Assembly (NCBI RefSeq): GCF_006152115.1
Contig: NZ_VDFU01000010.1
Coordinates: 1 to 64,000, forward strand
Origin: Rubellimicrobium rubrum
GTDB taxonomy: Bacteria > Pseudomonadota > Alphaproteobacteria > Rhodobacterales > Rhodobacteraceae
Direction: 5' to 3'
DNA length: 64,000 bases
Positions 17,477-41,479 of the stretch are shown in pieces. The notes beneath the pieces were generated by a model. The model ran no database searches, was not told the origin of the DNA, and saw nothing but the letters and a program-made list of their open reading frames with translations. Every line of letters begins with the position of its first letter. Positions within the stretch are counted from its first letter, which is position 1. The position numbers were made by a program, and so were the translations under genes.

Positions 17477-19079
17477 TCCTCGAGGGGTGCGCCTATTCTA
17501 TCGTTCCAGGGCAGCAGCTCGGCGATGCGGCTCTGCTTATGGCCTCGGACAATGGCCGTGATGGTGGCGGCCAGCCAGGCGTGAGGGTCGACGCCATTCA
17601 GCTTGCAGGTTTCGACCAGCGAAGCGATGACGACCCAGTTCTCGGCGCCTGCGTCGTGGCCCGGGAAGAGGGCGTTCTTGCGGCTCAGGGCGATGAAACG
17701 GATCGTCCGCTCGACGGTGTTGCTGTCGATCTCGATGCGCCCATCGGTCAGGAAGCGGCCAAGGCCGTTCCAGTACTTGGCGACATAGGCCAACGCTTCG
17801 CCGAGGGGCGATTTCGAGGAGACGCGGGCGCGGTGGTGGATGAGCCAGTCGCCGATCCGGGCGAGGACCGGCGCTGACCGCTCCTGCCGCAGGGCCAGGC
17901 GGGCCGCCGGGGCGAGGACACGGATCTCCGCTTCGATGCCGTAGAGCTCGCGGATGAGGGACACCCCTTCCTCCGCGATCGGGGCGGGACCTGTGCGGGT
18001 GATATCGATCAACTTGCGGCGAGCATGCGTCCAGCAATAGGCCAACTGGATGCTGGGACCGATGCGGTCAGGCGCGATCAGCCGGCTGTAGCCGGAATAG
18101 ACGTCCACCTGGAGGACACCCCCGAAGCCTTGCAGGATCCGTTCAGCATGCTGGCCGCCGCGTCCGGGCGCGTAGGTGAGGATGACGCCTGGCGGGGAGG
18201 TGCCGCCCCAAGGACGATCGTCTCGGGCGAGCGCCTAGAAGGTGCCGATCTTGGTCTTTCCAGACTCCGGATCGAGCACCGGCGCGCGTGTCTCGTCCAT
18301 GAAGAGGTTCGAGGACCGCTTCAGGTCCGCCATCAGGGCCTCATGGACCGGGCGCAACTCGAAGGCCGCGCGACCGACCCAGTCGGCAAGGTGGAGCGGT
18401 CGAGGTCGATCCCTTGGCGGCTGTAGATCTGGGCTTGGCGGTACAATGGGAGGTGATCGGCGTACTTCGAGACCAAGACATGTGCGACGGTCGCCTCGGT
18501 CGGCAGGCCGCCGGGGATCAGCCGCGCCGGGGCTGGCGCCTGCGCCACGCCATCGGTGCAGGACCGGCAGGCGTACTTCGGGCGGCGGGTCACGATCACG
18601 CGGAACTGGGCCGGAATGACGTCGAGCCGTTCGGACAGGTCTTCGCGGATGCAGTGCAGGCCACCGCCGCAGGCGCAGACCAGGCTCGTGGGCTCGATCA
18701 CCTCTTCGATGCGGGGCAAGTGCTGCGGCAGCGCGCCACGATTGGCCGCACGGGGCCTGACCTGCCGCTTGGCGGCACGATCCTCGGCATCCTCGTCGGC
18801 GTGAACGGCGGCGATGGCCGTTTCCAGATCCTCCAAAGCCAGCTCAAACTGATCGGGATCGCTCTTCTCGGACCGCCGTCCGAAGGCCGCCTGCCGAAAC
18901 GCCGCAACCAGCTTCTCCAGCCGCGCGATCCGCTCGTCCTTGCGCAAAGAGCGCTCCTCTGAAGCGGCGAGGCACGCCCTCAGCGTCGCGATCTCCTCAA
19001 GCAGATCGGCAGTTCCAGCATGGGGCCTGTCTACCAGACCCGCCCCGCTGAGGCCCGGAGAAAGGGCCGCCCGGGTCAT
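17473..19079 (-). pseudogene. IS66 transposase TnpC, frameshifted and with a nonsense codon
   Basis: The N-terminal part (from ATG 19079) carries the leucine-rich region, the zinc-finger-like segment (CACGG and KYACRSC) and YADHLPLYRQAQIYSRQGI. A one-base deletion in what should read TLADWVGRAA (about 18385) shifts the frame. In the new frame, FMDETRAPVLDPESGKTKIG is followed by TAG at about 18236, where ALARDDRPWG needs a Trp codon before it. The rest, through VDVYSGYSRL and CWTHARRKL to the C-terminus, is open to 17473. At least two lesions make it inactive. Confidence 0.88.
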
Positions 19080-19089
19080 CCTGCCGCAG

Positions 19090-19443
19090 TTATTCCACCG
19101 CCTCGGGTGCCCGCGCCTCGACGGCTCGGACCCGCCGCCAATCGAGCCCGGCAAACAGCGCCTCGAACTGCGCGTGGTTCAGCGACATCAGCCCGTCCTT
19201 CACCGCAGGCCAGGTGAAGCTGTGCTCCTCGAGCCGGGTGTCAGCCATAACCAGCCCGGTCCCGTCCCAGGTGAGCAGCTTCAGCCGGTCGGCCTTGCGC
19301 GCCCGGAACACGAAGACGGTCCCAGTGAACGGGTCCTTGCGCAGCTCGTTCTTCACCAGGGCCGCCAGGCTGTCGTGGCCCTTGCGAAAGTCGATGGGCT
19401 TTGTAGCCACCAGGATCCGCACGCGGTTCGACGGAACGATCAT
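19090..19443 (-). CDS. IS66 TnpB
   Basis: This 117-residue protein matches the IS66 Orf2 family: ILVATKPIDFRKGHDSLAAL, then DPFTGTVFVFRARKADRLKL and LTWDGTGLVMADTRLEEHSF. It is required for transposition of these elements, but its biochemistry is not settled. It starts inside the tnpA stop (ATGA overlap at 19440-19443) and ends 11 bases before tnpC, which is the normal operon arrangement. Confidence 0.9.
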   Translation of the reverse strand: MIVPSNRVRILVATKPIDFRKGHDSLAALVKNELRKDPFTGTVFVFRARKADRLKLLTWDGTGLVMADTRLEEHSFTWPAVKDGLMSLNHAQFEALFAGLDWRRVRAVEARAPEAVE

Positions 19444-21063: not shown

Positions 21064-21088
21064 GGAACACAGGGGAACGCTCGGCGTT
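21064..21088 (+). promoter_or_regulatory. EcfG-type general-stress promoter
   Basis: GGAAC at 21064-21068 and CGTT at 21085-21088 are separated by exactly 16 bases. This is the consensus read by EcfG-type extracytoplasmic sigma factors, which control the alphaproteobacterial general stress response with PhyR and NepR. It lies 34 bases before the DUF892 start. Confidence 0.75.
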
Positions 21089-21122
21089 GCTCGTGGCTTT
21101 GTTGAAGCCAATGGAGATCCCG

Positions 21123-21623
21123 ATGCCCGCTGCGAATTTGGAAAAGCTGTTTCATGACGGACTGCGCGACGTCTACTACGCTGAGCGCAAGGCCCTGCAG
21201 GCCTTGAAGAAACATGTCCGCGCCGCCCAGCACGCCGAGCTGAAGCAGGCGTTCGAGCTGCACCGCGACGAAACCGAAGGCCAGATCGAACGCCTTCAGC
21301 GCGTCTTCGAGACAATCGGAAAGCGTCCGCAGGGCAAGACCTGCGCCGCCATGGACGGCCTTGCCGAGGAAGGCGAGGAGATCATGGAGGAGTACAAGGG
21401 CTCACCGGCGGCCGATGCGGGCCTGCTCGCCGCTGCGCAAGCCATCGAGCACTATGAAATCTGCCGCTACGGCACTCTGGCATCCTGGGCCAAGCAACTG
21501 GGCAACACGGATGCCGAGGCCCTCCTGCGCGAGACCCTGGCCGAGGAGGAGAAGACCGACCAGCTCCTGACCGAGCTGGCCGAGTCCGTCATCAACGCAG
21601 CTGCCGAGGAACAGGCAGCCTAA
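21123..21623 (+). CDS. DUF892 ferritin-like stress protein, copy 1 (YciE/YciF family)
   Basis: This 166-residue all-helical protein belongs to the ferritin-like YciE/YciF family. Helix pairs with acidic residues (LRDVYYAERKALQALKKH, FELHRDETEGQIERLQRVFE, AIEHYEICRYGTLASWAKQL, LAEEEKTDQLLTELAE) place Glu and His where a di-iron site would form. The exact role is unknown; members respond to general stress. ATG 21123 gives MPAANLEKLF, the same start as copy 2 at 33519-34019, and the upstream in-frame ATGs lack conservation. The promoter matches the EcfG consensus. A hairpin follows the stop. Confidence 0.9.
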   Translation: MPAANLEKLFHDGLRDVYYAERKALQALKKHVRAAQHAELKQAFELHRDETEGQIERLQRVFETIGKRPQGKTCAAMDGLAEEGEEIMEEYKGSPAADAGLLAAAQAIEHYEICRYGTLASWAKQLGNTDAEALLRETLAEEEKTDQLLTELAESVINAAAEEQAA

Positions 21624-21662
21624 GCTCCTGTCCGGCAATCACCTGCGGTGAAAGCCAAAACC

Positions 21663-21694
21663 AAGGCCCTGGACGCGAGTGGCGTCCGGGGCTT
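21663..21694. terminator. Hairpin between convergent genes
   Basis: AAGGCCCTGGACGC, the loop GAGT, then GGCGTCCGGGGCTT form a stem of about 11 pairs with one mismatch, flanked by AA and TT. It lies between the ends of the convergent DUF892 and DUF2382 genes and could terminate both, although the T tract is short. Confidence 0.5.
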
Positions 21695-21724
21695 GTGGTC
21701 GTTGGGCCGGTGTGGCTCGGGGCG

Positions 21725-22588
21725 TCAGAACGTGCGCGAGGAGCCGCCCGTCCCGCCCGTGCCCGAGGTGGTGCCCCCGGTGAGCGAGCTGCGCTCGCCG
21801 GTGCGCTCGTCCTCGATCTCCACTTCCGTCTTGCGCACGGTGTCCTGGATGTGCTGGTGCTGGACCTCGGTCTCCTGGCGCAGGCCGATCTCCTCGACCA
21901 CCCGGGCCTCCTTGCCCACCACCGCCACCTCGGCCGTTTCGTGCGCTTCCAGCACCTGGTCGGGCAGGCCCATCTCATCGGGGTTCACGGGCCGGTCCAC
22001 GGGACGGCGCTCGATGTAGACCCGGGTCGACCGCAGCTCGACCTCGGCCTCCACCGGCACCTCACGCACAAAGGACCGCACGCGCACCGCCCCCCCTGCC
22101 ACCTCCTGCTTTCCGACGTTGAGCCGCTCCTCGACCACCTTGACGGTGCTGTCCTGATCGATCTCGCCACCGCTCCTCTGGCCCAAAGAGCCTGTGTCAG
22201 CAGAGGCGGCTGGCTGACGGGGGATGTAGTCCGCACTGGCGTACTGGGTGTCGAGTTCGTCGAGGTCATAGGCGTCCTCGGGGCGGCGCATGATCTCCTG
22301 AACGCGACCGAGATAGCTCTCGTCGTCGACGTCAACCGAGACCACATAGTCGCCGTTTCGAAGTGCCTGCTGATAGGTGCGGATGTCGTCCTCGGGGATG
22401 CCCAAGTCATAAAGCCGGTCCATGGCGCTGCCGGCCAGACCCTGAGCCCCAGAGGTCGAGCCGCTTGCGCCCGCTGTGTCCGACAGGACTGTGATGTTGT
22501 GCCCTGCGATGCCGAGCTGCTCGAGATCCCTGCGGACCAAATCGGCGACGTCAGACGTGCGGTAGATGGCGGTTACAGCGCGATGCAT
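21725..22588 (-). CDS. YsnF/AvaK-like DUF2382 stress protein
   Basis: This 287-residue protein has an N-terminal region of the general-stress YflT-like type (AVTAIYRTSDVADLVRRDLE, LGIPEDDIRTYQQALRNGDY). The C-terminal DUF2382 domain carries the paired repeats VVEERLNVGKQEV...VRVRSFVREVPVEAEVEL and VYIERRPVDRPV. The tail is Gly/Ser/Thr-rich. Proteins of this kind are induced by desiccation, radiation and oxidative stress; their biochemical role is unknown. ATG 22588 is supported by AAGGAACACCTCC just upstream. It is divergent from Mn-catalase and convergent with DUF892. Confidence 0.85.
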   Translation of the reverse strand: MHRAVTAIYRTSDVADLVRRDLEQLGIAGHNITVLSDTAGASGSTSGAQGLAGSAMDRLYDLGIPEDDIRTYQQALRNGDYVVSVDVDDESYLGRVQEIMRRPEDAYDLDELDTQYASADYIPRQPAASADTGSLGQRSGGEIDQDSTVKVVEERLNVGKQEVAGGAVRVRSFVREVPVEAEVELRSTRVYIERRPVDRPVNPDEMGLPDQVLEAHETAEVAVVGKEARVVEEIGLRQETEVQHQHIQDTVRKTEVEIEDERTGERSSLTGGTTSGTGGTGGSSRTF

Positions 22589-23004
22589 GGAGGTGTTCCT
22601 TGTCGGATCGGCAAAGCCAGCCCGCAAGGCGGCTGGCCTTGGCCTTCTGCCACGGTGATGTTCGACGCGCACAACGCCTGGCGGGGCGAACGGTTTCGTT
22701 GCCTCGAGAAGACTGCTGGATGGGGTGCCCGTTCAAGCCTTTGGACGGGGAACGGGTAGCCCAGAGCCTCAGGCGTGAGCACGTCCTACGGTCTCAGGGC
22801 ACCATGGCGCCTAACTCGGCCTGCTCTAATCCTCTACCGTAGATGGCCCTTTCGTCGATGGTCCCCATAGGCTCTCGTCCTGTTGCCGCCGTGACGCTTG
22901 GTCCCTCCAGACCCATGCTCAATCCTGCCTGCACGTGGCGGACCCCCTCGACGCCGCCATGCCCGGCTCCATCTGCTCCTGCGCCATCACATAGGAGGCC
23001 CCCC
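22589..23004. other. Divergent promoter region, ysnF-like / Mn-catalase
   Basis: These 416 bases separate two divergent stress genes. No EcfG consensus with correct spacing was found on either strand (a GGAAC at 22749 lacks a partner). AGGAGG lies 7-8 bases before the catalase ATG. Confidence 0.4.
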
Positions 23005-23946
23005 ATGTTCCTTCGCGTTGACAAGCTCCAGGTCGACCTGCCTCCCCCCAAGAAGCAGGACCCCAACGCGGGTGCCGCCCTCCAGGAACTGCTTGGCGGC
23101 AAGTACGGCGAGATGTCCACGCTCGGCAACTACATGTTCCAGAGCTTCAACTTCCGCTCCAAGTCCAAGTTGAAGCCCTTCTACGAGCTGGTGGCCGCCA
23201 TCACCGCCGAAGAACTGGGGCATGTGGAACTCGTCTCGAACGGCGTGGCGATGCTGAACAACGGCCCGGATTCTGCGGCCGATGACTCGGGCAATGGCGG
23301 CGACATCTCCATGGCCCCCTTCGAGGCCATGCAAGAGATCCGCTCGGCCGCGAGCTTCTTTTCGCATGGCGGCGGCGCGGTGCCGGTGAACTCGAACTCC
23401 ATGTCCTGGAACGTGGACATGGTGACGACCACGGGCAACGTGGTGTTCGACCTGCTCCACAACTTCCACCTCGAATGCGGCGCGCGGCTTCACAAGCTGC
23501 GGGTCTACGAGACGCTGTCCGATCCCACGGGCCGCGAAGTTTGCGGCTATCTCCTCGTTCGTGGAAGCGTCCACGCCCATGCGTACGGCCTGGCGCTGAA
23601 AAAGCTGACCGGCGTCAGCATCGAGCAGATGCTCCCCACTCCGAACATCCCGCTCGACAAGATCCCCGAATGCCAAAAGTACCTGGCCGAAGGCTCGCAC
23701 CGGCGGCTCTACACGTTCTCGCCCGGCGACTACCAGTCGATCCGCGGCATCTGGGAAGGCGAGATGGCCCTGCCAACCGACCCCCCGGGCGAGCTTGAGG
23801 TCGTCGAAGGCATGCCAGACGGCGGACGAATCCACGACCTCGTGGGTCAGCCCTCGGCCTTCTCGCCCGATTATGCCCCTGAGGAGTTCTACGAGATCGC
23901 CCAGCGGCTGACCAAGGCCGCTCATCAGGGCGCCGGCTCGCTCTGA
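23005..23946 (+). CDS. Manganese-containing (non-haem) catalase
   Basis: This 313-residue protein matches the di-manganese catalase family, which converts hydrogen peroxide to water and oxygen in the cytoplasm. Ligand-bearing helices are visible: LQELLGGKYGEMSTLGNYMF, AAITAEELGHVELVSNGVAM (Glu and His ligands), and FHLECGARLHKLRVYE followed by SVHAHAYGLALKK (His ligand). The start (ATG 23005) is preceded by AGGAGG and gives the usual MFLRVDKLQ. Genes for DUF2382 and DUF892 stress proteins are adjacent, a common association in stress-tolerant bacteria. Confidence 0.93.
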   Translation: MFLRVDKLQVDLPPPKKQDPNAGAALQELLGGKYGEMSTLGNYMFQSFNFRSKSKLKPFYELVAAITAEELGHVELVSNGVAMLNNGPDSAADDSGNGGDISMAPFEAMQEIRSAASFFSHGGGAVPVNSNSMSWNVDMVTTTGNVVFDLLHNFHLECGARLHKLRVYETLSDPTGREVCGYLLVRGSVHAHAYGLALKKLTGVSIEQMLPTPNIPLDKIPECQKYLAEGSHRRLYTFSPGDYQSIRGIWEGEMALPTDPPGELEVVEGMPDGGRIHDLVGQPSAFSPDYAPEEFYEIAQRLTKAAHQGAGSL

Positions 23947-24025
23947 CATCAAGGCGGGTGCCCTCTCGGGGCGCCCTCTCCTGCTTCTGCCAACTGCAGG
24001 TTAGCTCGGCCGGTAACACTACGCG

Positions 24026-24346
24026 TTACCAGGTCTTGAGTGTCCGGAAGCAAGCCGAAACTTTGAGGGTTTCGCGCTCCATCCGCGTGCGCTCGAACTC
24101 ACGCCAGAGCTTGGCGTTTTCGGACGCCAAGTCGGCCAGCAATGGCGCCGACAGCCCCGTCGCAGATGCTTGCCCGGCCTGCGCACGCCATAGCGCTGCG
24201 TTCTGGGCCGCCGGCCAACTCCTCAGCATCAAGGGCTGAATGCCGAGCTCGGCCGCGATCTGCATCTGCGGCCGACCGCTGCTCTCCAGCAAGGCCACCG
24301 CTTCGCGCTTGAACTCGGGGGAGAACTCCCGCCTCGTCTTCGTCAT
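24026..24346 (-). pseudogene. IS3-family OrfA fragment
   Basis: The frame begins MTKTRREFSPEFKREAVALL, a typical HTH_Tnp_1 start, with LGIQPLMLRSWPAAQNAA as the recognition helix. It then drifts to SACFRTLKTW instead of the usual ...ILKKA.A.FA ending. No OrfB follows. It is a remnant. Confidence 0.75.
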
Positions 24347-24546
24347 CGGATCACCTTCCCCGCCCACACGGAGCGTATTGGAGGCGTCCACCGAAGCGGG
24401 GGAAGATCAACCTTCGATAATCTCCGGCGAGGAGAAAGAGGGTGCCGTCGATGACCAACGACCAGCGGGAGATCCGCCACGAGGGGCGGGACCTCGACGG
24501 CAAAGCAGGTGAAACGGGTGCTGGATCGGCTGGGATGAGACTGGAC

Positions 24547-24780
24547 CTACGAAGCGCCGACTGTGCCTGTGAAGCTGAGATCACAGACAATACTGCCCTG
24601 TTCGTCGGTGACACGCATCTTCCAGTTGGGATCTGGCCAGAACCGCTTCGCATGGTCTTTGATGATCGCACCTGAGGTAGCCACGGCGGTGACGCGAGCG
24701 GCTTCCAGATCGGGCAAGACGACTCCCACCTGATCAGAGAGGTGGCGGTCGTCTTCGATGTTGAAGAAGTAGCGGGGCAT
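24547..24780 (-). CDS. DUF6894 domain protein, copy 1
   Basis: This 77-residue protein begins MPRYFFNIEDDRHLSDQVGV, then LPDLEAARVTAVATSGAIIK and a beta-rich end (WKMRVTDEQGSIVCDLSF). The family is common and multi-copy in Methylobacterium-like bacteria and has no established function. A second copy is at 40200-40433 with about 60% identical residues by eye. ATG 24780 matches the conserved family start, so the longer frame upstream is rejected. Confidence 0.8.
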   Translation of the reverse strand: MPRYFFNIEDDRHLSDQVGVVLPDLEAARVTAVATSGAIIKDHAKRFWPDPNWKMRVTDEQGSIVCDLSFTGTVGAS

Positions 24781-24969
24781 TGCGGGCTCCTTGCATTGTG
24801 CAGCGGGAGCGCAGGCGCGTCTCTCAGGCACCGAAGGGCTACGAACAGAACCGGTGATGACATTGAGATAGGGGCGCGAGCCTTGAGAACCAAGCGAGCC
24901 GCCCGAAGCAGGGCTTGGGTTGGGTCTGGGGAGCCAGGAGCCTCACCCCAGCCGGTGCGGCGCCCTGCC

Positions 24970-25356
24970 CTACCGGATCAGTTCGACCGCCGCACCCACA
25001 TCCACCCTGCCCGAAGCCTGGTTAGCGGTAAGAGCGGGGGCGCTGAGTTCCGCTGCAAGGGTGAGGCAAGCCCGGTCGCCCAAGGAGAGCCCGAGTGATC
25101 GCGTGGCTGGCCGCAGGTGCCCCGTGGCAGTGGCCTGACCTGCCGTAAGTTGCCGGACGTCCAGGTTGAGCCCGCCCAAGGCTTCTTCCACCTCCTCCAC
25201 GCTGAGGCCGCGCTCGCGCAGCTTGGTGACGACCTCGGCCAGGTTCACGGCCCCGATCACCGCCGAAGGCAGGGCTTCGGCAACGCGATCTGCTCCCGCT
25301 TCTCCGTTCAAGAGGCAGAGCAGCGCCGAGGAGTCCAGGACCACGGCCTTACTCAC
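24970..25356 (-). CDS. vapC: VapC-type PIN-domain toxin
   Basis: This 128-residue PIN-domain ribonuclease has the acidic residues expected at the active site: Asp8 in VVLDSSALLCLL, Glu in NLAEVVTKLRE and Asp in LGDRACLTLA. VapC toxins cut specific RNAs, often tRNA, when released from the antitoxin. It overlaps the upstream AbrB-type antitoxin gene by 8 bases, so the pair is co-translated. The C-terminus (ALTANQASGRVDVGAAVELIR) resembles typical VapC ends. Confidence 0.88.
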   Translation of the reverse strand: MSKAVVLDSSALLCLLNGEAGADRVAEALPSAVIGAVNLAEVVTKLRERGLSVEEVEEALGGLNLDVRQLTAGQATATGHLRPATRSLGLSLGDRACLTLAAELSAPALTANQASGRVDVGAAVELIR

Positions 25357-25630
25357 GCTCGGCCTCGCGCCGGCGGTCCGCGATCAACTCGTCGGCCAGC
25401 GACACCCCTTCGGGCACGTGGCGCCGCAGGATGGCTTGGGCGTGTGCAATGGCTTTGGAGAGTGACCGGATCCGCAACTCGCCATCCGCCACATCGACCA
25501 GCACGGTATCGCCGGTTGCGATGCCGAGCTCGCGTCGCATGCTGGCCGGGATGATGAGCTTACCACCCTCGATGATCCTGACCCTCTGAGGCGACATGGC
25601 GTGCATTAGCATGTCATCCCTAATTGGCAT
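25349..25630 (-). CDS. vapB: VapB-type antitoxin (AbrB/MazE fold)
   Basis: This protein of up to 93 residues has a SpoVT/AbrB swapped-hairpin DNA-binding domain (VRIIEGGKLIIPASMRRELG, then TGDTVLVDVADGELRIRSL) and a C-terminal tail that would wrap the toxin (VSLADELIADRRREA). Four Met codons lie in the first 12; the one before SPQRVRIIE (25597) is the domain-proximal alternative start. It represses its own operon in related systems. The first gene of the vapBC pair. Confidence 0.85.
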   Translation of the reverse strand: MPIRDDMLMHAMSPQRVRIIEGGKLIIPASMRRELGIATGDTVLVDVADGELRIRSLSKAIAHAQAILRRHVPEGVSLADELIADRRREAERE

Positions 25631-25870
25631 GATCCTACCCTTATAGCCGAAACTGGGGCAACTAGCATGCGGGTCACATTACTCGCGATATGAAAGAGTG
25701 GCCCATCAGGTCCAATGTTCAGCATATCGGGCGCAAGTGCGTCATTTAGGGTATGCCTCAGAAGGACATTTACATCGGACAGCTTTGTGCGTCCAAATAG
25801 GGTTGCTTTGGGCCATATCGGACAGTAGCGTGAGCGGGTCTAGACCCTACTCGGACAGAATGGCTCCTCG
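25631..25870. promoter_or_regulatory. Possible res site upstream of resolvase
   Basis: The gap contains a repeated motif: CATATCGGGCGCAAGTGCGT (near 25723), ACATCGGACAGCTTTGTGCG (near 25772), ATATCGGACAGTAGCGTGAG (near 25817) and CTCGGACAG (25849). Serine resolvases bind several imperfect subsites just upstream of their own gene, which fits this layout. Confidence 0.45.
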
Positions 25871-26452
25871 ATGACCCTCTACGGCTATGCTCGTGTGTCT
25901 ACCGGCGATCAGGACCTCGCCCTGCAGGAGGCGGCGCTCCGGTCTGCCGGCTGCCAAGTGACCCGCTCCGAGAAGAAGACCGGCACCCAGCGCGAGGGCC
26001 GGACGGAGCTCGACATCCTGCTGCAGTTCCTCCGCCCTGGCGACACTCTGGTGATCACCCGCATTGATCGGCTGGCACGCTCCCTCAAGGACCTCCAGGA
26101 CATCATGCATGAACTGAAGAGCAAAGGCGTGACGCTCAAGGCTACCGAGCAGCCGGTGGACACTTCCACTGCCGCCGGTAAGGCTTTCTTCGACATGTTG
26201 GGCGTGTTTGCCGAGTTCGAGACCAACCTACGACGAGAGCGGCAGATGGAAGGGATCGCAGCCGCCAAGGAGCGGGGGGTCTACACAGGACGGAAGCCTA
26301 AGATTGACCCAGACGAGGTCCGCCGGCTCTTTAGCGAAGAGAACCTCAGCTCCACGGCCATAGCCAAGCGGTTAAAGGTCGCCCGGTCCTCGGTTTATCG
26401 CTTCCTGCCCGAGCTTCAGACGGTGTCCTCGCCAGCCGGCAAGGAAGCCTAA
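25871..26452 (+). CDS. Serine recombinase of the resolvase/invertase family
   Basis: This 193-residue protein is complete. Its N-terminal catalytic domain starts MTLYGYARVSTGDQDLAL, with Ser10 as nucleophile, followed by LVITRIDRLARSLKDLQDI and FDMLGVFAEFETNLRRERQM (long E helix). A GRKPKIDPDEVRRLF linker leads to a helix-turn-helix of the Hin type (SSTAIAKRLKVARSSVYRFL). It catalyses site-specific recombination. It abuts a response-regulator gene missing its N-terminal half, so it, or the element that carried it, may have caused that truncation. Confidence 0.93.
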   Translation: MTLYGYARVSTGDQDLALQEAALRSAGCQVTRSEKKTGTQREGRTELDILLQFLRPGDTLVITRIDRLARSLKDLQDIMHELKSKGVTLKATEQPVDTSTAAGKAFFDMLGVFAEFETNLRRERQMEGIAAAKERGVYTGRKPKIDPDEVRRLFSEENLSSTAIAKRLKVARSSVYRFLPELQTVSSPAGKEA

Positions 26453-26472
26453 GCCTGGAGCTGTAGAGCTCC

Positions 26473-26706
26473 CGGCATGCTGTCGACCTCCTGATCACCG
26501 ACCATCTGATGCCAGGGATGAGCGGGGCCGAGCTGGTCCGCGAGGCCCGGGTGCTCCGGCCTGGGCTGCCGGCACTGATCGTGTCGGGTTACGCGGAGCT
26601 GGAGGGGATTGCCCCCGGTCTGCCGCGGCTCGTGAAGCCGTTCCGCGCGGCCGAGCTTGCCGAGAAGGTGGGGACCCTCGTGACAGGCGCCACACCCGGC
26701 GGATAG
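26473..26706 (+). pseudogene. Response-regulator receiver domain, N-terminally truncated
   Basis: The frame reads VDLLITDHLMPGMSGAELVR, then LPALIVSGYAELEGIAPGLP and LVKPFRAAELAEKV. These are the phospho-acceptor Asp (LLITDHLMPGMSG), the switch Ser/Thr strand and the Lys of a CheY-like domain. The first 50 or so residues, with the acidic metal-binding pair, are missing. Upstream lies the end of the resolvase gene. ATG 26509 could initiate only a non-functional peptide. Confidence 0.8.
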
Positions 26707-27142
26707 GAACGCCATCCGACCCGCTTGCCATGTCGGTGTCAGCAACATGTGCCTCGCTCTCGAGCAGATCCTTGGACGGCAGCGGACATGGGGGAGAGCG
26801 ATCGTGCTACGTCTACGACATGCGGGGACATCGTCCGACACGAACCCTCTGACTCCAACGGCCGAGAGTTCTTGGGCTCCCGCTGCGCCGCGCGAAGAGA
26901 GCTTCAGTCCCTTCACTCTTCCATGTTGACGGCGGTCCGGATCTGCCGGACGCATGCAGGAGCCGTCTGGCGGGGATCGAGGACGCGCGAGCTGCAGCCT
27001 TCGTCTTCGCCGGCGAGGCAGCGAGGGATGTCAATCGGCACGGGACCCGGGACCGGCGTCCAAGAGGAACTCCGCTTGGGATGCGGCGAGCTGGGCCTGA
27101 TCCGGCGCAGCTGACGGGGAGCGGAGCCGGACCAGGCCTAGT
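26707..27142. other. Non-coding gap
   Basis: No convincing gene or repeat was found. Short frames on both strands lack family features. Confidence 0.4.
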
Positions 27143-27574
27143 TCAGTCCGAGTTATGCGGCGGGACCGTGTGCGACGAGTAAAGGTGCAGGGCCGAAGGC
27201 GCGTCAGGGGGCAGCGGACGGTCATGCAGGACCGCATCGGCCACCTCCATGGCTCCGGCGAGGGAATAATCGGTGATCGGCTTATGTAGGCAGCCCAGGG
27301 CCAAGGCGCGCCCGCGATCTTCCGGACAGTTCCCGGTCGCAAAGAGCACGGGCACGCCTCGCGCCTGGAGCGCCGCCGCGACGTCGAGCCCGCTCGAGCC
27401 TCCCGCCAGCTGCACGTCCACGAGCGCGAGGTCGGGCCGCTCCGCATCGACGGCCGTCATGGCTGAGGGCAAGTCATCGGCCTGAGCTGTCGCCTCATGG
27501 CCCGCAAGCCCCAGCATGCCCTCTATCTCCATGGCGACGAGCACCTCGTCCTCAACGATCAAAACACGCAACAC
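27143..27574 (-). CDS. Single-domain response regulator
   Basis: This 143-residue CheY-like protein has the acidic pair at Glu8-Asp9 (LIVEDEVLVA), phospho-acceptor Asp53 (LALVDVQLAGG), the Thr in VLFATGN and the Lys in LHKPITDYS. There is no output domain; the last 25 residues are an unstructured-looking tail. It starts 41 bases after the large CheB-CheR-PAS kinase gene on the same strand, so it is the likely phosphate acceptor of that kinase. Confidence 0.9.
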   Translation of the reverse strand: MLRVLIVEDEVLVAMEIEGMLGLAGHEATAQADDLPSAMTAVDAERPDLALVDVQLAGGSSGLDVAAALQARGVPVLFATGNCPEDRGRALALGCLHKPITDYSLAGAMEVADAVLHDRPLPPDAPSALHLYSSHTVPPHNSD

Positions 27575-27615
27575 CCTGCTCCTCTCTCCGGCACGTCTCC
27601 AGGGACGCGCCGCCC

Positions 27616-32658
<5,043 letters not shown>

Positions 32659-33069
32659 GGTAGATGGCCTCGACTGAAGGTCCCGTCCCATGAAGCCGAT
32701 CACCACTCTGATCGCAAGCGTCGCGCAGTCGCGATTGCGACGCCCAGACCAGTCAGGTGCAGGTAGCCCAGTGCGCCGAGGCAGTTTGACGTTCCTCCTG
32801 CCGAGCAATGGCGCCGATCAGTGCGACGGCAATGCAGGATGCCGAATAACCGACTGGCATCGTGCCTGCAGGCCTTTGTAGCCGTGGCTTCGCGGCCTCG
32901 AGCCTCTAGACCTCAGACGGTCCGACCCAAATGCCTGGTCCGGGCGCTGTAGGCGGGCTGAAGAAGGGCAGGCAACAGGCTGTCGCTGGTTGGACCACGT
33001 TTCTCCTGCTCCACAACCACAGTCTGGACCTAATCGGCCTTCACCTGCGGCGGGAGCACGACGAGCCCC
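32659..33069. other. Non-coding gap, kinase upstream region
   Basis: No gene is seen. It must hold the promoter of the CheB-CheR-PAS kinase (minus strand) and that of the small broken gene at 33070 (plus strand); no EcfG consensus with proper spacing was found. Confidence 0.4.
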
Positions 33070-33313
33070 ATGATCATGAACGCCGACCGCATTGCCTATG
33101 ACCTCGCCACAAGTCCCGATGAAATCGAGGATGCCAAGACCATCCTGCGGGATCTCGAAGAGATCATCTTCGAGACTTTGCCCCCCCCCCCATCACGCCA
33201 AGGCGGCCTATGTCGCGGCGCTCCGACACCTGCTGCGGCTGCTGGGAGGGGACGCCGTGCTGGCCACGGATAGCCTTCTCGCGCGTGCTACACGTGGGAA
33301 CCGCGAGCGCTGA
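33070..33313 (+). pseudogene. Small hypothetical gene split at a C11 homopolymer
   Basis: The first frame reads MIMNADRIAYDLATSPDEIE, then DAKTILRDLEEIIFETLPPP. After a run of 11 C (33181-33191) the same-looking protein continues one frame over as HHAKAAYVAALRHLLRLLGG, then DAVLATDSLLARATRG. With one C fewer the two halves make a single 80-residue helical protein. The run is either a sequencing error, a real mutation or a slippage switch. No family is recognised. Confidence 0.6.
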
Positions 33314-33518
33314 GGGCTTCCCTCGATCCGGCCGTCTTGGCGCTCCAGCCGATGGACAACTCGAGAGATGATCGAGAAGACTGCCCCCCCTCAAGCACGT
33401 CGCCGGCCTTGTCCCAGAAAGGCTCCCGAGAAGGTGTTAGGTGACCCAAGCTCGTCGGTCATCCCTGGTAAGCCGGCTCTGGCCCTCCCAAGCCGAACGC
33501 GCGAGACGACCGTGCGGG

Positions 33519-34019
33519 TCAGGCCGCCTGGTTCTCGGCCGCCGCGTTGATGATGCTCTCGGCCAAGTCGGTCAGGAGCTTGTCGGTCTTCTCCTCCTCG
33601 GCCAGCGTCTCGCGCAGGAGCTGCTCGGCCTCGGCGTTGCCGAGCTGCCGGGCCCAGGCCGCGAGCGTGCCGTAGCGGGTGATCTCATAGTGCTCGACAG
33701 CTTGGGCGGCCGCGAGAAGGCCCGCGTCGAGGGCAGGAGAGCCCTTGTACTCCTCCATGATCTCTTCGGCTTCCTCGACAATCCCGTCCATGGCGGCGCA
33801 GGTCTTGCCCTGGGGCCGCTTGCCGATGCTCTCGAACACGCGCTGGAGGCGCTCCACCTGGCCTTCGGTCTCGTCGCGATGGGTCTCGAAGGCCTGCTTG
33901 AGCTCGGGGCTCTGGGCGGCGCGGGCGTGCTTTTTCAGCGCCTGAAGAGCTTTCTTCTCGGCATAGTAGACGTCCCGGAGGGTGTCGTGGAACAGCTTCT
34001 CGAGGTTCGCTGCAGGCAT
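33519..34019 (-). CDS. DUF892 ferritin-like stress protein, copy 2
   Basis: This 166-residue protein has the same length and start (MPAANLEKLFHD) as copy 1 at 21123-21623, with roughly 85% identical residues by eye. The helices and candidate metal ligands are kept (VYYAEKKALQALKKHARAA, AVEHYEITRYGTLAAW, LAEEEKTDKLLTDLAESI). Its promoter region also holds a perfect EcfG-type site, so both copies are probably induced together. The two genes are 12 kb apart in opposite orientation. Confidence 0.9.
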   Translation of the reverse strand: MPAANLEKLFHDTLRDVYYAEKKALQALKKHARAAQSPELKQAFETHRDETEGQVERLQRVFESIGKRPQGKTCAAMDGIVEEAEEIMEEYKGSPALDAGLLAAAQAVEHYEITRYGTLAAWARQLGNAEAEQLLRETLAEEEKTDKLLTDLAESIINAAAENQAA

Positions 34020-34055
34020 GAATGTCTCCGTCCTGGCATCGGTGAGGAGTCAGGC

Positions 34056-34080
34056 AACGCGGCCCGATGACAGGTGTTCC
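34056..34080 (-). promoter_or_regulatory. EcfG-type general-stress promoter
   Basis: Read on the minus strand, GGAAC (34080-34076) and CGTT (34059-34056) are separated by 16 bases, identical in layout to the site before copy 1. The site ends 36 bases upstream of the DUF892 copy 2 start. Confidence 0.75.
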
Positions 34081-34134: not shown

Positions 34135-34690
34135 TCAGCCTCGCAGGGCGTCCGAGAAGCGGTCCAACTCCTGCTCGAGGATGCAGACCATGACCTCGTC
34201 GGCCATCTCCGCCAGTGCGGCCTTCTGGTCCGGCGTGAACCCCCGCGGCCGAGTGTCGAGCACGCACAGGCCCCCGAGCCGGATATCGCGCATGTAAATG
34301 AGCGGCGCCCCAGCGTAGAAGCGGACGAAGGGCTCCCCCGTGACGAGGGGGTTGGCAGCGAAGCGGGGGTCCAGCCGGGTGTCTGGCACGACCAGGACCT
34401 CGTCGGACCGGATCAGGTGGTCGCAGAACGCATCTGGTCGGGAGGTCTCCTGGAGGTCAGTGCCCGCTCGGGCCTTCACGATCTGCCGGTCCTGAGTGAC
34501 AATGGTCACCAGAGCCATAGCTACCCCGAAGCGCCCCTGCGCACGTCGACAGATCTCCTCCAGCTCCGGCGGGGGGGGGCGAGGTGAGCACATGCAGACT
34601 TCTCAGAACCTGAAGGCGTTGGACCTCGATGAGGCTATCCGAACCAAGCACAGGTGCGTCCTCCCAGCCGCCGAGGCGCATGACTTGCAA
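34135..34690 (-). pseudogene. GAF-domain protein, frame broken at a G9 run
   Basis: The main frame (34593 to 34135) is a GAF domain: LEEICRRAQGRFGVAMALVT, KARAGTDLQETSRPDAFCDH, VVPDTRLDPRFAANPLV and FYAGAPLIYMRDIRLGGLCV. GAF domains bind small ligands and often sit before kinases. The usual lead-in helix (IEVQRLQVLRSLHVLTSPP) lies one frame away, upstream of a run of nine G on the plus strand (34571-34579). With eight G the gene would be continuous from about 34690, giving some 184 residues. The shorter frame could still be translated from ATG 34593. Confidence 0.65.
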
Positions 34691-34809: not shown

Positions 34810-36633
34810 TCACCTGACGATCTGCTCCAGGGGGATCTGCAGGCGGATGAGCACTCCGGCTGGCTGCCAGTCGTGAACCATGGTCCCGCCCAGCTGACCC
34901 GTGATCCCTAGGCGGGCGAGCTGCGAGCCGAAACCCTTCCGGACAGGTGGGCTCGTGATGGTCGGGCCGCCCTGCTCTTGCCAGGTGAGGATGAGAGCGT
35001 CGTCCTGGACCCCCCAGGTGACCTCCAGCGAGCCCTCTGGGTTGCTCAGCGCCCCATACTTGGCCGCGTTGGTAGCCAGCTCATGCAGCACGAGGGCGAG
35101 GCTCGTCGCCGCCTTGGGCCCCGCCCGCAGCGCTGGTCCGTCGACACGGACCCGGTCCGCACCCGCCTCGAGGTAGGGCTCCACGACGACCCCCACGAGA
35201 TCGGCAAGCCGGGCGCTCTCGCCCCCTTTGGCGCTCGCCTTCACCGCAGCCCGTATCAGGTTGTGCGCCCGCGAGAGGGCCAGCAGGCGCCCGCTCAGAG
35301 CTGACGCCATCTCGGCCGGGCTCCGGGCGGTGCGGGCGGTCATGTTGACCATGCCCGCAGCGATGGTGAACAGGTTCTTGAGCCGGTGGTCGAGCTCCTC
35401 GACGAGGAGCTGCCGCGCCTCTTCCGCCCGGTGCAGCTCAGTGATGTCGCGCGAGATGGCGAGGAGCTTCTCTGGGGCGCCCTCCGGGCCGGGGATCGGG
35501 CTGACGGATACGTCCCACCACCTGGGCGTGCCCTTCAGGGTGGGAAGGAACGCCTGGAAACGGCCTGTCCCTCCAGCCAGCGCCATGGCCAGAGCCGCGC
35601 GCGCTTTGGGCTGCTCCTCGGGCGACCAGAGCGAGGCCCACTCGGCTCCGTGCAGCTGGCGCTCGTAGTCGTCCACCTCCATCAGGCCCAGGCCGCCCTG
35701 GCTGAAGAGCTCGAGCCCACCTTTAAGGCTCAGGACCTTGATGCAGTCGGGTGAGCTGTCCAGAATGCTGCGGACGAAAGCCTCGCTGGCCTGGAGAGCC
35801 GCCTGGGCCTCACGCTCAGCCGTGATGTCGACGTTGAAGCCCACGATGCTTAGGCCCTTCGGCGTGGCGACGCCCTCGCCGCAGCCCCGGAGCCAGCGCC
35901 AGCCCGCCTCGGGGCTGCCCACCCGGAACTCGGCCTCGTAACGGCCACCTGGTACCTTGGCCGAAGCCAGGGCCGCCATGGTCGCGGGGAGGTCCTCTGG
36001 ATGGATGCACGTCCCGAAGTCGTCAACACGCCTCGCGGCCCGGCCTGCGGGCATGCCGAACATCGTGGCCAAGCCGGTCTCGTAGATGACCTCCGTCGTC
36101 TCCGCGTCGATCTCCCAAGTGACGAAGCCGGCGATGCGGGAAGCCAGGGTCGCGCGGCGCTCCACGACGGCGGCCCGCTCCTGGGCCTGACGCTCGGCCG
36201 TCACATCGAAGTTGACGCCCACCAGACGGAGCGCCGAGCCGTCCTCGCCCCGCTCGACGACCCCACGATCAAGGATCCACCGCACCTCGCCGTCCGGCCG
36301 AATAATGCGGAACTCGTGGGAGAAGGACGACGCCTCGCTGACATAGGACACCGTCTCCGCGTCCACGCGCTCGCGGTCCTCGGGATGCACGAACGCGAGA
36401 AAGCTCAGGTCGTCGGTCGGGCCCGCGATCACGCCGTAGAGCCGCCGCAGGCTCTCGTTCCAGTCGACGCGGTTGGTGGCCACCTCCCACTGCCAGACCG
36501 CGAGGCCCGGCACCTGGAGCAGGGTTGCCAGATGGATCGGGAGCGGGGGAGAGGCCCCGGACCGCCCTGGCGCCCCCTGCTCGGGAGCGGCCGCGCGCGG
36601 GCCAGTTCCTTGACCGGACCTTTGCTGAGGCAT
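34810..36633 (-). CDS. PAS-domain sensor kinase of the HWE family
   Basis: This 607-residue soluble kinase has three PAS domains (about 40-160, 165-285 and 290-400); the third closely resembles a PAS in the large kinase at 27.6 kb (both contain DCIKVLSL and KLL(A/S)ISRDITE). The HWE-type dimerisation/phosphorylation domain follows, with the phospho-His in EELDHRLKNLFTIAAGMVNM near 410, then the HWE ATPase with LVLHELATNAAKYGAL and KGFGSQLA. HWE kinases feed the alphaproteobacterial general stress and light responses, often through PhyR. ATG 36633 is chosen for its GGGAG ribosome site. No cognate regulator is adjacent. Confidence 0.9.
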   Translation of the reverse strand: MPQQRSGQGTGPRAAAPEQGAPGRSGASPPLPIHLATLLQVPGLAVWQWEVATNRVDWNESLRRLYGVIAGPTDDLSFLAFVHPEDRERVDAETVSYVSEASSFSHEFRIIRPDGEVRWILDRGVVERGEDGSALRLVGVNFDVTAERQAQERAAVVERRATLASRIAGFVTWEIDAETTEVIYETGLATMFGMPAGRAARRVDDFGTCIHPEDLPATMAALASAKVPGGRYEAEFRVGSPEAGWRWLRGCGEGVATPKGLSIVGFNVDITAEREAQAALQASEAFVRSILDSSPDCIKVLSLKGGLELFSQGGLGLMEVDDYERQLHGAEWASLWSPEEQPKARAALAMALAGGTGRFQAFLPTLKGTPRWWDVSVSPIPGPEGAPEKLLAISRDITELHRAEEARQLLVEELDHRLKNLFTIAAGMVNMTARTARSPAEMASALSGRLLALSRAHNLIRAAVKASAKGGESARLADLVGVVVEPYLEAGADRVRVDGPALRAGPKAATSLALVLHELATNAAKYGALSNPEGSLEVTWGVQDDALILTWQEQGGPTITSPPVRKGFGSQLARLGITGQLGGTMVHDWQPAGVLIRLQIPLEQIVR

Positions 36634-36901
36634 GACACTCCCATCAGGTTGGACCAGCACAACGCCGGTAGGCTAACATCGATCCTCTCATCCGTCCGCT
36701 GCGACAGAGGCGCCGCCGGCCGGTTCGCGTTCCCGAGGCACTTTGAGCATGCCCGGATCCGCTCAGCCAGAGAGCCGCCTCGGAACCTTTAGAGAACGGA
36801 AGGCATATCGCACAAGCAGATTGCAAACGGGAAGCGGCGGACGCTGTCCCCAGCGTCCGCCGCTCCTCTTGTTCAAGGCTGACCCCAGTTCGAGCCGAGG
36901 C

Positions 36902-37440: not shown

Positions 37441-37818
37441 ATGAAGCAGACATCCGGACCGACGAAGAAGGCACCCGCAGAAGCCGTCCTGAAGGACATC
37501 CGGCGCGTCACAAATCGCCAGTTCTCCGCGGAGGAGAAGATCCGCATCGTGCTGGAGGGCTTGCGGGGCGAGGACAGCATTGCCGAGCTGTGCCGCCGCG
37601 AGGGGATCAGCTCGTCCATGTACTACGGCTGGTCCAAGGAGTTCCTGGAGGCTGGAAAGCGTCGCTTGGCGGGTGACACCGCCCGGGCGGCCACCTCGGA
37701 TGAGGTGAAGGAGCTCCGCCGCGAGGCCAGTGCGCTCAAGGAGGTCGTCGCCGACCTCACGCTCGAGAACCGCCTGCTCAAAAAAAGCATCAACGGGGCT
37801 GGGGGCGACGACGCATGA
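37441..37818 (+). CDS. IS3-family transposase OrfA
   Basis: This 125-residue protein has a helix-turn-helix (RQFSAEEKIRIVLEGLRGED, then IAELCRREGISSSMYYGW) and a C-terminal coiled coil (EVKELRREASALKEVVADLT, LENRLLKKS). It overlaps OrfB by four bases (ATGA at 37815-37818). An AAAAAAG run near its end (about 37781) could be a -1 slippage site producing an OrfAB fusion. Intact. Confidence 0.88.
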   Translation: MKQTSGPTKKAPAEAVLKDIRRVTNRQFSAEEKIRIVLEGLRGEDSIAELCRREGISSSMYYGWSKEFLEAGKRRLAGDTARAATSDEVKELRREASALKEVVADLTLENRLLKKSINGAGGDDA

Positions 37819-38795
37819 GATATCCCGCCTCCGAGAAGGCCGAGATCATCCGCCTGGTGGAGCAGTCGCATCTGCCCGTGCGGCGCACGCTGGAGAAGCT
37901 TGGCATCCCAAGGGCCACCTTCTACCGGTGGTACGACCTTTACCAGGCTGGCGGCCCTGAAGCCCTGGAGGACCGCCCCTCCCGGCCAAGCCGCGTCTGG
38001 AACCGCATCCCGGACGAGGTCCGCGTCAAGGTGATCGCCTTGGCGCTGGAGCAACCCGAACTCTCGCCACGCGAGTTGGCCGTGCGCTTCACCGACGAGC
38101 AGAAGTACTTCGTCTCCGAAGCTTCAGTGTATCGCCTGCTCAAGGCTCACGATCTGATCACCAGCCCGGCCTACATCGTAGTCAAGGCGGCGGACGAGTT
38201 CACGGACAAGACCACGGCACCCAACCAGCTCTGGCAGACCGACTTCACCTACCTGAAGGTCACGGGCTGGGGCTGGTACTATCTCTCGACCGTGCTCGAC
38301 GACTTCTCGCGGTTTGTCGTGGCCTGGAAGCTCTGCACGACCATGAAGGCCGAGGACGTCACCACCACACTGGACCTCGCGCTGTCTGCCTCAGGGCTCG
38401 ACCAGGTCAAGGTCCGCCACCGGCCCAGACTCCTGAGCGACAACGGCTCGAGCTACATCGCCGGCGATCTCGCGGAGTGGCTCGAAGACAAAGGTATGGC
38501 CCACATCCGTGGTGCGCCCCGGCATCCACAGACCCAGGGCAAGATCGAGCGCTGGCACCAGACGTTGAAGAACCGCATCCTGTTCGAGCACTACTACCTG
38601 CCGGTCGCCCTGGAGGAGCAGGTCTCAGCCTTCGTCGAGCACTACAACCACAGCCGCGCCCACGAGAGCCTGAGCAACCTCACCCCCGCCGACGTCTACC
38701 TCGGCCGGGGTCAGGCCATCCTGGCCGAGCGAGAGCGGATCAAGAAGCAGACCCTCACCCAACGGCGCTTGCAGCACCACGCCGCAGCCGCCTAA
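37815..38795 (+). CDS. IS3-family transposase OrfB (DDE integrase core)
   Basis: This 326-residue DDE recombinase starts with a helix-turn-helix (VRRTLEKLGIPRATFYRWYD). The integrase core shows Asp in LWQTDFTYLKV, Asp in RLLSDNGSSYIAGD and Glu in QGKIERWHQTLKNRI, then YNHSRAHESLSNLTPADVYL. All catalytic residues are in place, so this copy may be active. Confidence 0.92.
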   Translation: MRYPASEKAEIIRLVEQSHLPVRRTLEKLGIPRATFYRWYDLYQAGGPEALEDRPSRPSRVWNRIPDEVRVKVIALALEQPELSPRELAVRFTDEQKYFVSEASVYRLLKAHDLITSPAYIVVKAADEFTDKTTAPNQLWQTDFTYLKVTGWGWYYLSTVLDDFSRFVVAWKLCTTMKAEDVTTTLDLALSASGLDQVKVRHRPRLLSDNGSSYIAGDLAEWLEDKGMAHIRGAPRHPQTQGKIERWHQTLKNRILFEHYYLPVALEEQVSAFVEHYNHSRAHESLSNLTPADVYLGRGQAILAERERIKKQTLTQRRLQHHAAAA

Positions 38796-40474: not shown

Positions 40475-41476
40475 GGTGTTTGATCCCATGGTTTGATGGT
40501 GTGATCCTTTCGATGGAATGGAAGGAAGCCCTATGGGACAGGTTCGTCATGGGAGCGCCACGACCACGCACGCCATCCGAGCTGCGATACAGCGATCGCA
40601 AGCTTCGCTGGCGCAGTTGAGCCGGGAGTTAGGGATCAACCCAAAGACGGTCGCGAAGTGGCGAAAGCGGGTGACGGTCGAGGATCTCAAGACCGGGCCG
40701 AAGGAGCCGCGATCCACGATCCTCACGGAGGTGGAAGAAGCGATGGTCGTCGCGTGTCCCTCGCCACACGCTGCTGCCACTGGACGACTGCCTCTATGCC
40801 CTGCAACCGACAATCCCGAACCTGACCCGGTCGGCGCTGCACCGGTGCTTGCAGCGGCATGGCATCTCACGCCTACCGGACGTCGAAGGGGACAAGCCCA
40901 AACGGCAAAGGTTCAAGAGCTACTCAATCGGGTTCTTCCACATCGACATCGCCGAGCTTCAGACCGCCGCGGGCAAGCTCTACGTCTTCGTCGCCATTGA
41001 CCGGACAAGCAAGTTCGCCTTTGCCAGGCTGGTCGACAAGGCCGGGAAGATGGCCGCGGCGCAGTTGCCTCACGCGATCTGATCGCCGCTGTTCCTTATC
41101 GGCTCCACACCGTGCTGACCGACAACGGCATACCCATCGCAAGGGCGACGTCTTCGCGATGGAGCACATCTTCAGCCGCGTCTGCCGGGAACATGGGATC
41201 GAGCACCGGCTGACCAAGATAAAACACCCCTGGACGAATGGTCAGGTCGAGCGAATGAACCGCACGATCAAGGACGCTACCGTGAAGCGGTTCCACTACG
41301 ACAGCCACGACCAACTCCGCAGCCACCTCCAGGACTTCCTGGACGCCTATAACTTTGCCCGGCGGCTCAAAACACTGGCCGGTCTCACCCCATACGAGTT
41401 CATCTGCAAAATCTGGACTTCAGAACCGCAGCGGTTCACCCTCAATCCGATCCACCAAATGCCGGGACTGAACACC
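40475..41476. mobile_element. IS481-family element, degraded
   Basis: The ends GGTGTTTGATCCCATGGTTT (left, about 40475) and, in reverse complement, GGTGTTCAGTCCCGGCATTT (right, about 41476) form an imperfect inverted repeat. A clear target duplication was not found, so the limits are good to a few bases only. The single transposase gene is frameshifted. Confidence 0.65.
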
Positions 41477-41479
41477 TAG
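40518..41479 (+). pseudogene. IS481-family transposase with several frameshifts
   Basis: Three frames must be joined. The first (to about 40757) has the helix-turn-helix ASLAQLSRELGINPKTVAKW. The second (to 41082) has LLPLDDCLYALQPTIPNLTR, then HIDIAELQTAAGKLYVFVAI with the first catalytic Asp. A third stretch gives AAVPYRLHTVLTDNGI, then HRLTKIKHPWTNGQVERMNR with the final Glu. Shifts occur near 40757, near 41080 and near 41135. The rest runs to a normal end. Confidence 0.85.

What the first reader, a model, noticed from the sequence alone, without database searches (positions are those of the whole stretch)
21064..34080. Two DUF892 genes share perfect EcfG-type promoters
The sequence GGAAC-N16-CGTT occurs 34 bases before the DUF892 gene at 21123 and 36 bases before its near-identical copy at 34019 on the other strand. 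Those are the sites expected for the alphaproteobacterial general stress sigma factor. Other stress genes in the island (Mn-catalase, DUF2382, DUF6894) lack an obvious copy. Duplication of the promoter with the gene, 12 kb apart and inverted, points to selection for dosage.
Basis: partly seen in the sequence, partly recalled or inferred. Interest (0 to 1): 0.7.

Follow-up and report, generated by a model that had tools for sequence, protein, structure and literature searches.

The report
Stress-sigma promoters before ferritin-like stress genes
Two related genes for small ferritin-like stress proteins each carry a switch for the bacterium's general stress response, as many of their relatives do; they look like ordinary members of a known stress programme, with the twist that one gene's coding part is nearly identical to a third copy elsewhere while its switch is not.

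Summary
Both GGAAC-N16-CGTT sites are where stated and are very probably EcfG (general stress sigma) promoters. The genome (nearest named relative Rubellimicrobium mesophilum) has NepR and two PhyR/EcfG loci. In its genus, 19 of 26 DUF892 (YciF-like) genes carry GGAAC-N16/17-C/GGTT within 150 bp; the window genes' own subfamily has 9 of 9 in exact form, 33-36 bp before ATG, amid diverged flanks. Among 80 named relatives it is 37 of 80, against 0 of 80 for the reversed pattern.

The history needs correcting. The two window genes are not near-identical (81% DNA). The gene at 21123 is 97% identical to a third copy on contig C13, and that identity stops 12 bp before ATG, so the promoter was not copied with it. 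The C13 gene is divergent from a Mn-catalase; both have EcfG sites. The window's Mn-catalase (start 23005) is 96% identical to that one but lacks a site. Gene conversion between older paralogues, sparing local promoters, fits best. Dosage selection is untested.

Closest known system: the RpoS-dependent yciGFE-katN operon of enterics. EcfG dependence is inferred; there are no transcript data.

The parts
21064..21088 (+). EcfG-type promoter, GGAAC-N16-CGTT, 34 bp before the ATG
   Evidence: exact match; same element in 9 of 9 genus members of the subfamily
21123..21623 (+). DUF892 / YciF-like ferritin-fold stress protein, 166 aa
   Evidence: Pfam PF05974 E=1.9e-57; one non-synonymous difference from the C13 copy over the compared codons
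21111..21620 (+). stretch 97.3% identical to contig C13:292012-292521; starts 12 bp before the ATG and ends at the last codon
34056..34080 (-). EcfG-type promoter, GGAAC-N16-CGTT, 36 bp before the ATG
   Evidence: exact match
33519..34019 (-). DUF892 / YciF-like ferritin-fold stress protein, 166 aa; older paralogue (81% DNA identity to 21123)
   Evidence: Pfam PF05974 E=4.4e-62; PDB YciF 2gs4 E=6.6e-39, 4eru E=1.4e-40
23005..23946 (+). Mn-catalase (KatN type), start re-called from 22843 to 23005; no EcfG site upstream
   Evidence: Pfam PF05067 begins at residue 55 of the 22843 ORF, genome search puts the match start at 23005; no site
22974..23944 (+). BLAST stretch 96.2% identical to the C13 Mn-catalase; differences crowd upstream of the gene and in its first 12 codons
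   Evidence: Fisher p=8e-7 for the 12 codons, a boundary chosen after seeing the data
21725..22672 (-). DUF2382 gene between the two; no EcfG-type site
   Evidence: Pfam PF09557 E=7.6e-20
34135..34593 (-). GAF-domain gene upstream of the 34019 gene (context)
   Evidence: Pfam PF01590
34810..36660 (-). PAS sensor kinase of the HWE family (context; the family that feeds the general stress response)
   Evidence: Pfam PF07536 E=2.1e-17
27616..32808 (-). CheB-CheR-multi-PAS kinase with HisKA_2/HWE domain (context)
   Evidence: Pfam hits

Best explanation
The two sites are promoters of the general stress sigma factor EcfG. Each drives one member of a YciF-like (DUF892) gene family that belongs to the general stress regulon in this genus and in many other Alphaproteobacteria. 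Under stress, HWE/HisKA2 kinases phosphorylate PhyR, PhyR takes NepR off EcfG, and EcfG-RNA polymerase starts at these sites, making a ferritin-fold protein that probably works beside Mn-catalase against oxidative damage (function inferred from the family). The genome holds three genes of this subfamily: one on contig C13, in the place shared with other genus members and divergent from a Mn-catalase with an EcfG site of its own, and the two window genes. The recent near-identity is between the C13 pair and the window pair 21123/23005. It covers coding sequence and not the promoters, which fits gene conversion between pre-existing paralogues that left each gene its own local promoter. Shown: sites, conservation, regulators, boundaries of identity. 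Inferred: binding by EcfG, induction, conversion, protein function.
For: Sites and distances. Own genome: NepR; PhyR and EcfG on C7 with an exact site facing each way between them; a second PhyR/EcfG-like pair on C13, by profile score and back-to-back layout. Genus: 19 of 26 DUF892 genes have C/GGTT sites within 150 bp (16 of 26 the CGTT form); the subfamily of the window genes 9 of 9, always N16, 33-36 bp before ATG, while spacer, upstream and downstream flanks average 0.49, 0.34 and 0.43 pairwise identity. Named relatives: 37 of 80 C/GGTT, 26 of 80 CGTT within 150 bp, reversed control 0 of 80; N16 in 35, N17 in 2, N22 in 1, no other spacing from 10 to 24; background 0.009 per 150 bases. Genome-wide, 55 of 83 matches look intergenic against 7 of 30 reversed-pattern matches examined, of 74 (Fisher p=5e-5), and genes behind them include phyR, nepR-ecfG, a sigma-70-type sigma factor, Mn-catalase, PRC-barrel, PNPOx-like and DJ-1/PfpI genes. 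Conversion.
Against: No transcript or mutant data. 7 of 26 genus DUF892 genes lack the site: all 6 of a distant subfamily (one, L135, is cut at a contig end) and one other, L119. 43 of 80 named relatives lack the C/GGTT form within 150 bp, among them all 6 Brevundimonas loci. The exact motif on its own is barely above control in the genome, 83 versus 74, and the GGTT form is below its control, 89 versus 120. Outside the genus no Mn-catalase was found divergent from the DUF892 gene in the 9 loci scanned. Conversion was not tested with a dedicated recombination program, and the 12-codon boundary in the catalase was chosen after seeing the data.
Confidence: 0.85

Rival explanations
1. One reading: gene and promoter were duplicated together within the window, and both copies are kept for dosage.
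For: Two paralogues with equal promoter cores lie 13 kb apart in opposite directions; in genus genome G003 (same sites as R. mesophilum) the two copies do share sequence around the promoter: 11 of 16 spacer bases and 17 of 22 bases downstream.
Against: 81% DNA identity only; spacer 8 of 16 and upstream 13 of 40 identical; the trees put 21123 with C13 and not with 34019, at support 100/100 in DNA and 100/97 in protein.
Confidence: 0.07
2. The 97% pair (21123 and C13) is a recent copy of the coding sequence into a new place, where an EcfG promoter then arose anew; or a relative's genes were imported.
For: Identity begins at -12 and ends at the last codon.
Against: The 21123 promoter sits at the subfamily's fixed distance and shares GGGC before GGAAC with C13 and 34019, unlikely for a new promoter; in the Mn-catalase 8 of the first 12 codons differ against 21 of the other 301, which fits replacement inside an existing gene.
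Confidence: 0.15
3. The sites are read by another ECF sigma factor that also likes GGAAC, not by EcfG.
For: GGAAC is a common -35 element of ECF sigma factors (general knowledge); the genome has two further sequences with weaker matches to the PhyR sigma2 profile, on C9 and C8 (44 and 37 bits).
Against: The -10 CGTT and N16 spacing are those published for EcfG (passages in PMC3892343, PMC7083833, PMC4814048), and the same sites stand before phyR and nepR-ecfG here.
Confidence: 0.08
4. Chance matches in a GC-rich genome.
For: Pattern count near that of the reversed control.
Against: Conserved position and spacing across genomes, reversed control 0 of 80.
Confidence: 0.01

Closest known systems
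EcfG (ECF15) general stress regulon of Alphaproteobacteria, PhyR-NepR-EcfG partner switch
   Same: Promoter GGAAC-N16/17-C/GGTT; regulators present in the genome; targets of the usual kind. R. thermophilum is reported to have two GSR loci, as here (PMC12148442, one section read).
   Different: In the passages that I saw no DUF892 gene is named as a target; a putative Mn-catalase (CH00462) is named as RpoE4-dependent in R. etli (PMC3188799 passage); that RpoE4 is EcfG1 is recalled.
yciGFE-katN operon of Salmonella and EHEC, under RpoS
   Same: YciF/YciE (which match DUF892 proteins here by sequence) and a Mn-catalase joined under the general stress sigma factor (PMC5363993 passages).
   Different: Here the sigma factor is unrelated (EcfG), the genes are divergent and not one operon, and there are extra copies.
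E. coli YciF and relatives (PDB 2gs4, 4eru), ferritin-like fold
   Same: Aligns over nearly the whole protein, E=6.6e-39 and 1.4e-40; E21, H47, E109, H110, E112, E142, D146 kept in at least 99 of 100 aligned rows, the distant subfamily's 6 rows left out.
   Different: No solved structure of the window proteins; metal binding not tested.

Membership tests
EcfG (GSR) regulon | EcfG-type promoter GGAAC-N16/17-C/GGTT at promoter distance | tested here: met
EcfG (GSR) regulon | genome encodes EcfG, NepR and PhyR | tested here: met
   NepR; PhyR and EcfG
EcfG (GSR) regulon | promoter conserved in orthologues | tested here: met
   9 of 9 in the genus subfamily; 37 of 80 named relatives
EcfG (GSR) regulon | expression lost in ecfG or phyR mutant, start site mapped | not testable with these tools
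   needs experiment
DUF892 / YciF family | match to PF05974 above cut-off | tested here: met
   194 and 209 bits against cut-off 23.7
DUF892 / YciF family | ferritin-like diiron fold | tested here: inconclusive
   sequence match to solved YciF and conserved E/H/D residues; no structure predicted or solved
EcfG (GSR) regulon, window Mn-catalase | EcfG-type promoter | tested here: not met
   none within 250 bp and no further match in the window; 8 of 13 genus Mn-catalase genes have one
Ectopic gene conversion | near-identity bounded inside otherwise diverged paralogues | tested here: met
   DUF892 tract stops at -12 and the last codon; Mn-catalase differences crowd in codons 1-12
Ectopic gene conversion | unconverted allele in a relative at the window locus | tested here: inconclusive
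   by the coordinates none of the 7 other genus genomes shows a DUF892 gene beside a second catalase of this type; no wider search was made, and the assemblies are in pieces

The most novel reading that the evidence does not exclude
YciF-like proteins and Mn-catalase form one old stress module that unrelated general stress sigma factors have each taken over (EcfG here, RpoS in enterics), and in this lineage gene conversion keeps the proteins of separate copies alike while their promoters stay separate, so that copies differ in control (EcfG-driven or not) but not in product.
Probability: 0.35. Interest if true: 0.5.

Novelty: new member of a known kind. Interest (0 to 1): 0.35.

Why it matters
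DUF892 proteins have no agreed function. That their promoter is tied to the general stress sigma factor across many alphaproteobacterial genera, as the enteric homologues are to RpoS, makes them a likely stress-regulon marker and gives concrete promoters for reporters. The window Mn-catalase, nearly the same protein as its EcfG-site-bearing twin but without the site, is a natural test of what EcfG control adds.

Tried and rejected
Pattern counting over the window and genome as proof: rejected, since 83 matches stand against 74 for the reversed pattern and the GGTT form falls below its control, 89 against 120. Copying of mature transcripts as the source of promoterless copies: considered because the BLAST similarity of the C13 Mn-catalase ends at the end of its -10 element, rejected because base-by-base comparison shows that upstream stretch and the first 12 codons to be diverged. 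Partner genes in other genera: of 11 named relatives with an exact EcfG-type site also facing the other way, 9 had an ORF longer than 45 codons behind it and were scanned; none was a Mn-catalase (6 small YgaP-TM-like proteins, the 6 Microvirga loci, 5 of them over the Pfam cut-off; one YetF, one SpoIIAA-like, one BLUF). The catalase partnership is thus shown for this genus only. Structure prediction was not run because YciF is solved. Of 55 intergenic-like sites, 45 had a credible downstream ORF; 40 of the 45 were scanned, 30 with a Pfam match and 10 without; three others are DUF892 genes and two (L007, L011) were not scanned. Some of these ORFs start more than 150 bp from the site and may not belong to it. 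The intergenic call is a simple codon-usage score. Literature: in the listings of searches (30 of 164 shown; 15 of 3,315 shown), 57, 65 and 72 I found no paper naming DUF892 under EcfG; regulon tables in supplements were not open to me, so this is weak. Ferritin-like proteins named in two regulon papers are Dps or read as Dps-type (passages in PMC5869019 and PMC6599016).
Full report
OBSERVATION. Both sites exist as described: GGAAC-N16-CGTT at 21064-21088 (+), 34 bases before the ATG at 21123, and at 34056-34080 (-), 36 bases before the ATG at 34019. Both genes are DUF892, PF05974. A third exact match at 9350 lies in sequence that a codon-usage score calls coding. No further match exists in the window even with any base at the first position of the -10. 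Counting alone would not convince: 3 matches in the window against a shuffle mean of 0.84, with 6 of 100 shuffles reaching 3, and 83 in the genome against 74 for the reversed pattern.

ARE THEY PROMOTERS? Position and conservation decide. The genome (4.6 Mb, 104 contigs) has 6 DUF892 genes; 4 have an exact site upstream and a fifth (C14) has GGAAC-N16-GGTT, which is within the published consensus C/GGTT (passages of PMC4814048; section of PMC12148442). Of the 8 genus genomes 7 have DUF892 genes, 26 in all: 16 of 26 have the CGTT form and 19 of 26 the C/GGTT form within 150 bases. The seven without are the 6 members of one distant subfamily (one cut at a contig end) and L119. In the subfamily of the window genes all 9 have the exact element with N16 at 33-36 bases before ATG, while pairwise identity averages 0.49 in the spacer, 0.34 in the 40 bases upstream and 0.43 in the 22 bases downstream. 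43 of 80 lack the form, among them all 6 Brevundimonas loci. Of 43 group labels that I assigned from record titles, 21 have at least one.

REGULATORS AND REGULON. NepR is found once, C7:48273. On C7 a PhyR gene and a NepR-EcfG pair stand back to back with an exact site facing each way. A second PhyR/EcfG-like pair lies at C13:199670-200439, judged by profile score and layout; neither form of the site is listed near it. R. thermophilum too is reported to have two GSR loci (PMC12148442, section read). Of the 83 genome matches 55 look intergenic by codon usage, against 7 of the 30 reversed-pattern matches examined (of 74, the first 30 in contig order; Fisher p=5e-5). Of 40 downstream ORFs scanned, 30 have Pfam matches, including PhyR, EcfG, a sigma-70-type sigma factor (RpoH-like is my reading), Mn-catalase, PRC-barrel (two), PNPOx-like, DJ-1/PfpI, BrkB, CinA and OmpA. 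This is a plausible general stress regulon.

COPIES. The two window genes are 81% identical in DNA, not near-identical. The near-identical partner of 21123 is C13:292012-292521, 97.3% over 510 bases, 13 synonymous differences and 1 non-synonymous. Trees agree. The C13 gene is divergent from a Mn-catalase, and this divergent pair is found in 5 of the 7 genus genomes that have DUF892 genes (G000 C13, G001 C20, G002 C33, G003 C45, G004 C87; coordinates). In all 5 pairs the DUF892 side has an exact site; the catalase side has a C/GGTT site in 2 of 5, and in the R. mesophilum locus L039 the same position reads GGAAC-N16-TGTT (my reading). Of 13 Mn-catalase genes in the genus, 8 have a C/GGTT site within 250 bases.

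The window's Mn-catalase is best started at 23005 and not 22843 (the Pfam domain begins at residue 55 of the longer ORF). It is 96.2% identical to the C13 catalase, but 8 of its first 12 codons differ against 21 of the other 301 (Fisher p=8e-7, with the boundary chosen after seeing the data), and there is no EcfG site. The DUF892 identity begins 12 bases before ATG and ends at the last codon; between 21123 and C13 the spacer, upstream and downstream stretches agree at only 6 of 16, 16 of 40 and 7 of 22 bases. The C13 promoter-to-gene stretch resembles that of G001, G002 and G004, so C13 looks like the ancestral place. The simplest account is gene conversion between older paralogues that replaced coding sequence and left local promoters. 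Thus the promoter was not duplicated along with the gene in the recent event, and dosage selection remains an idea.

WHAT IT DOES. The 34019 protein matches solved YciF structures over nearly its whole length (2gs4, 4eru). Residues of the type that bind a metal pair in ferritin-like folds (E21, H47, E109, H110, E112, E142, D146 in the numbering of the 34019 protein) are kept in at least 99 of 100 aligned rows (the 80 named and 26 genus proteins less the 6 of the distant subfamily, the overlapping R. mesophilum/G003 rows counted twice); calling them ligands is inference. In EHEC and Salmonella yciGFE and katN form an operon, and in EHEC katN depends on RpoS (PMC5363993 passages). Here the same kinds of genes sit behind EcfG sites. 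From memory, the B. subtilis Mn-catalase YdbD is under SigB, which would be a third unrelated general stress factor. In R. etli a putative Mn-catalase is RpoE4-dependent (PMC3188799 passage). I found no paper naming DUF892 genes as EcfG targets in the listings of searches, several of which were cut short, and regulon tables in supplements could not be read.

VERDICT. A correct and useful promoter call, with an incorrect history. Ordinary in kind (members of a known regulon), with a well-supported link between DUF892 genes and EcfG-type promoters across many alphaproteobacterial groups and a neat case of near-identical coding sequence with separate promoters.

Noticed in passing
window 23005-23946 and C13:290909-291880: Near-identical Mn-catalases, one with and one without an EcfG site; differences crowd in the first 12 codons.
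   Followed up: yes
window 27616-32808 and 34810-36660: Two PAS-rich HWE/HisKA_2 kinases, one fused to CheB and CheR, flank the 34019 DUF892 gene; kinases of this family feed PhyR.
   Followed up: no
window 32210-32306 (-): ARAGORN calls a tRNA-Leu with anticodon AAG inside the large kinase gene; probably a false call.
   Followed up: no
window 13680-13796 (-), 18333-19154 (-), 37815-38795 (+), 40859-41479 (+), 25871-26452 (+): ALIL pseudoknot (Rfam), IS66 and integrase-core transposase pieces and a resolvase: the region is rich in mobile elements.
   Followed up: no
C7:46000-58800 (L138): Six exact EcfG sites within 9 kb around the phyR/nepR-ecfG locus.
   Followed up: partly
L083, L086, L095, L096, L097, L117 (Microvirga): A small YgaP-TM-like gene divergent from the DUF892 gene carries its own GGAAC-N17-CGTT site in all 6 Microvirga loci fetched.
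   Followed up: partly
L109 (Brevundimonas), 5192-5641: A BLUF blue-light sensor gene lies divergent from the DUF892 gene with an EcfG-type site facing it, 188 bases before its start.
   Followed up: no
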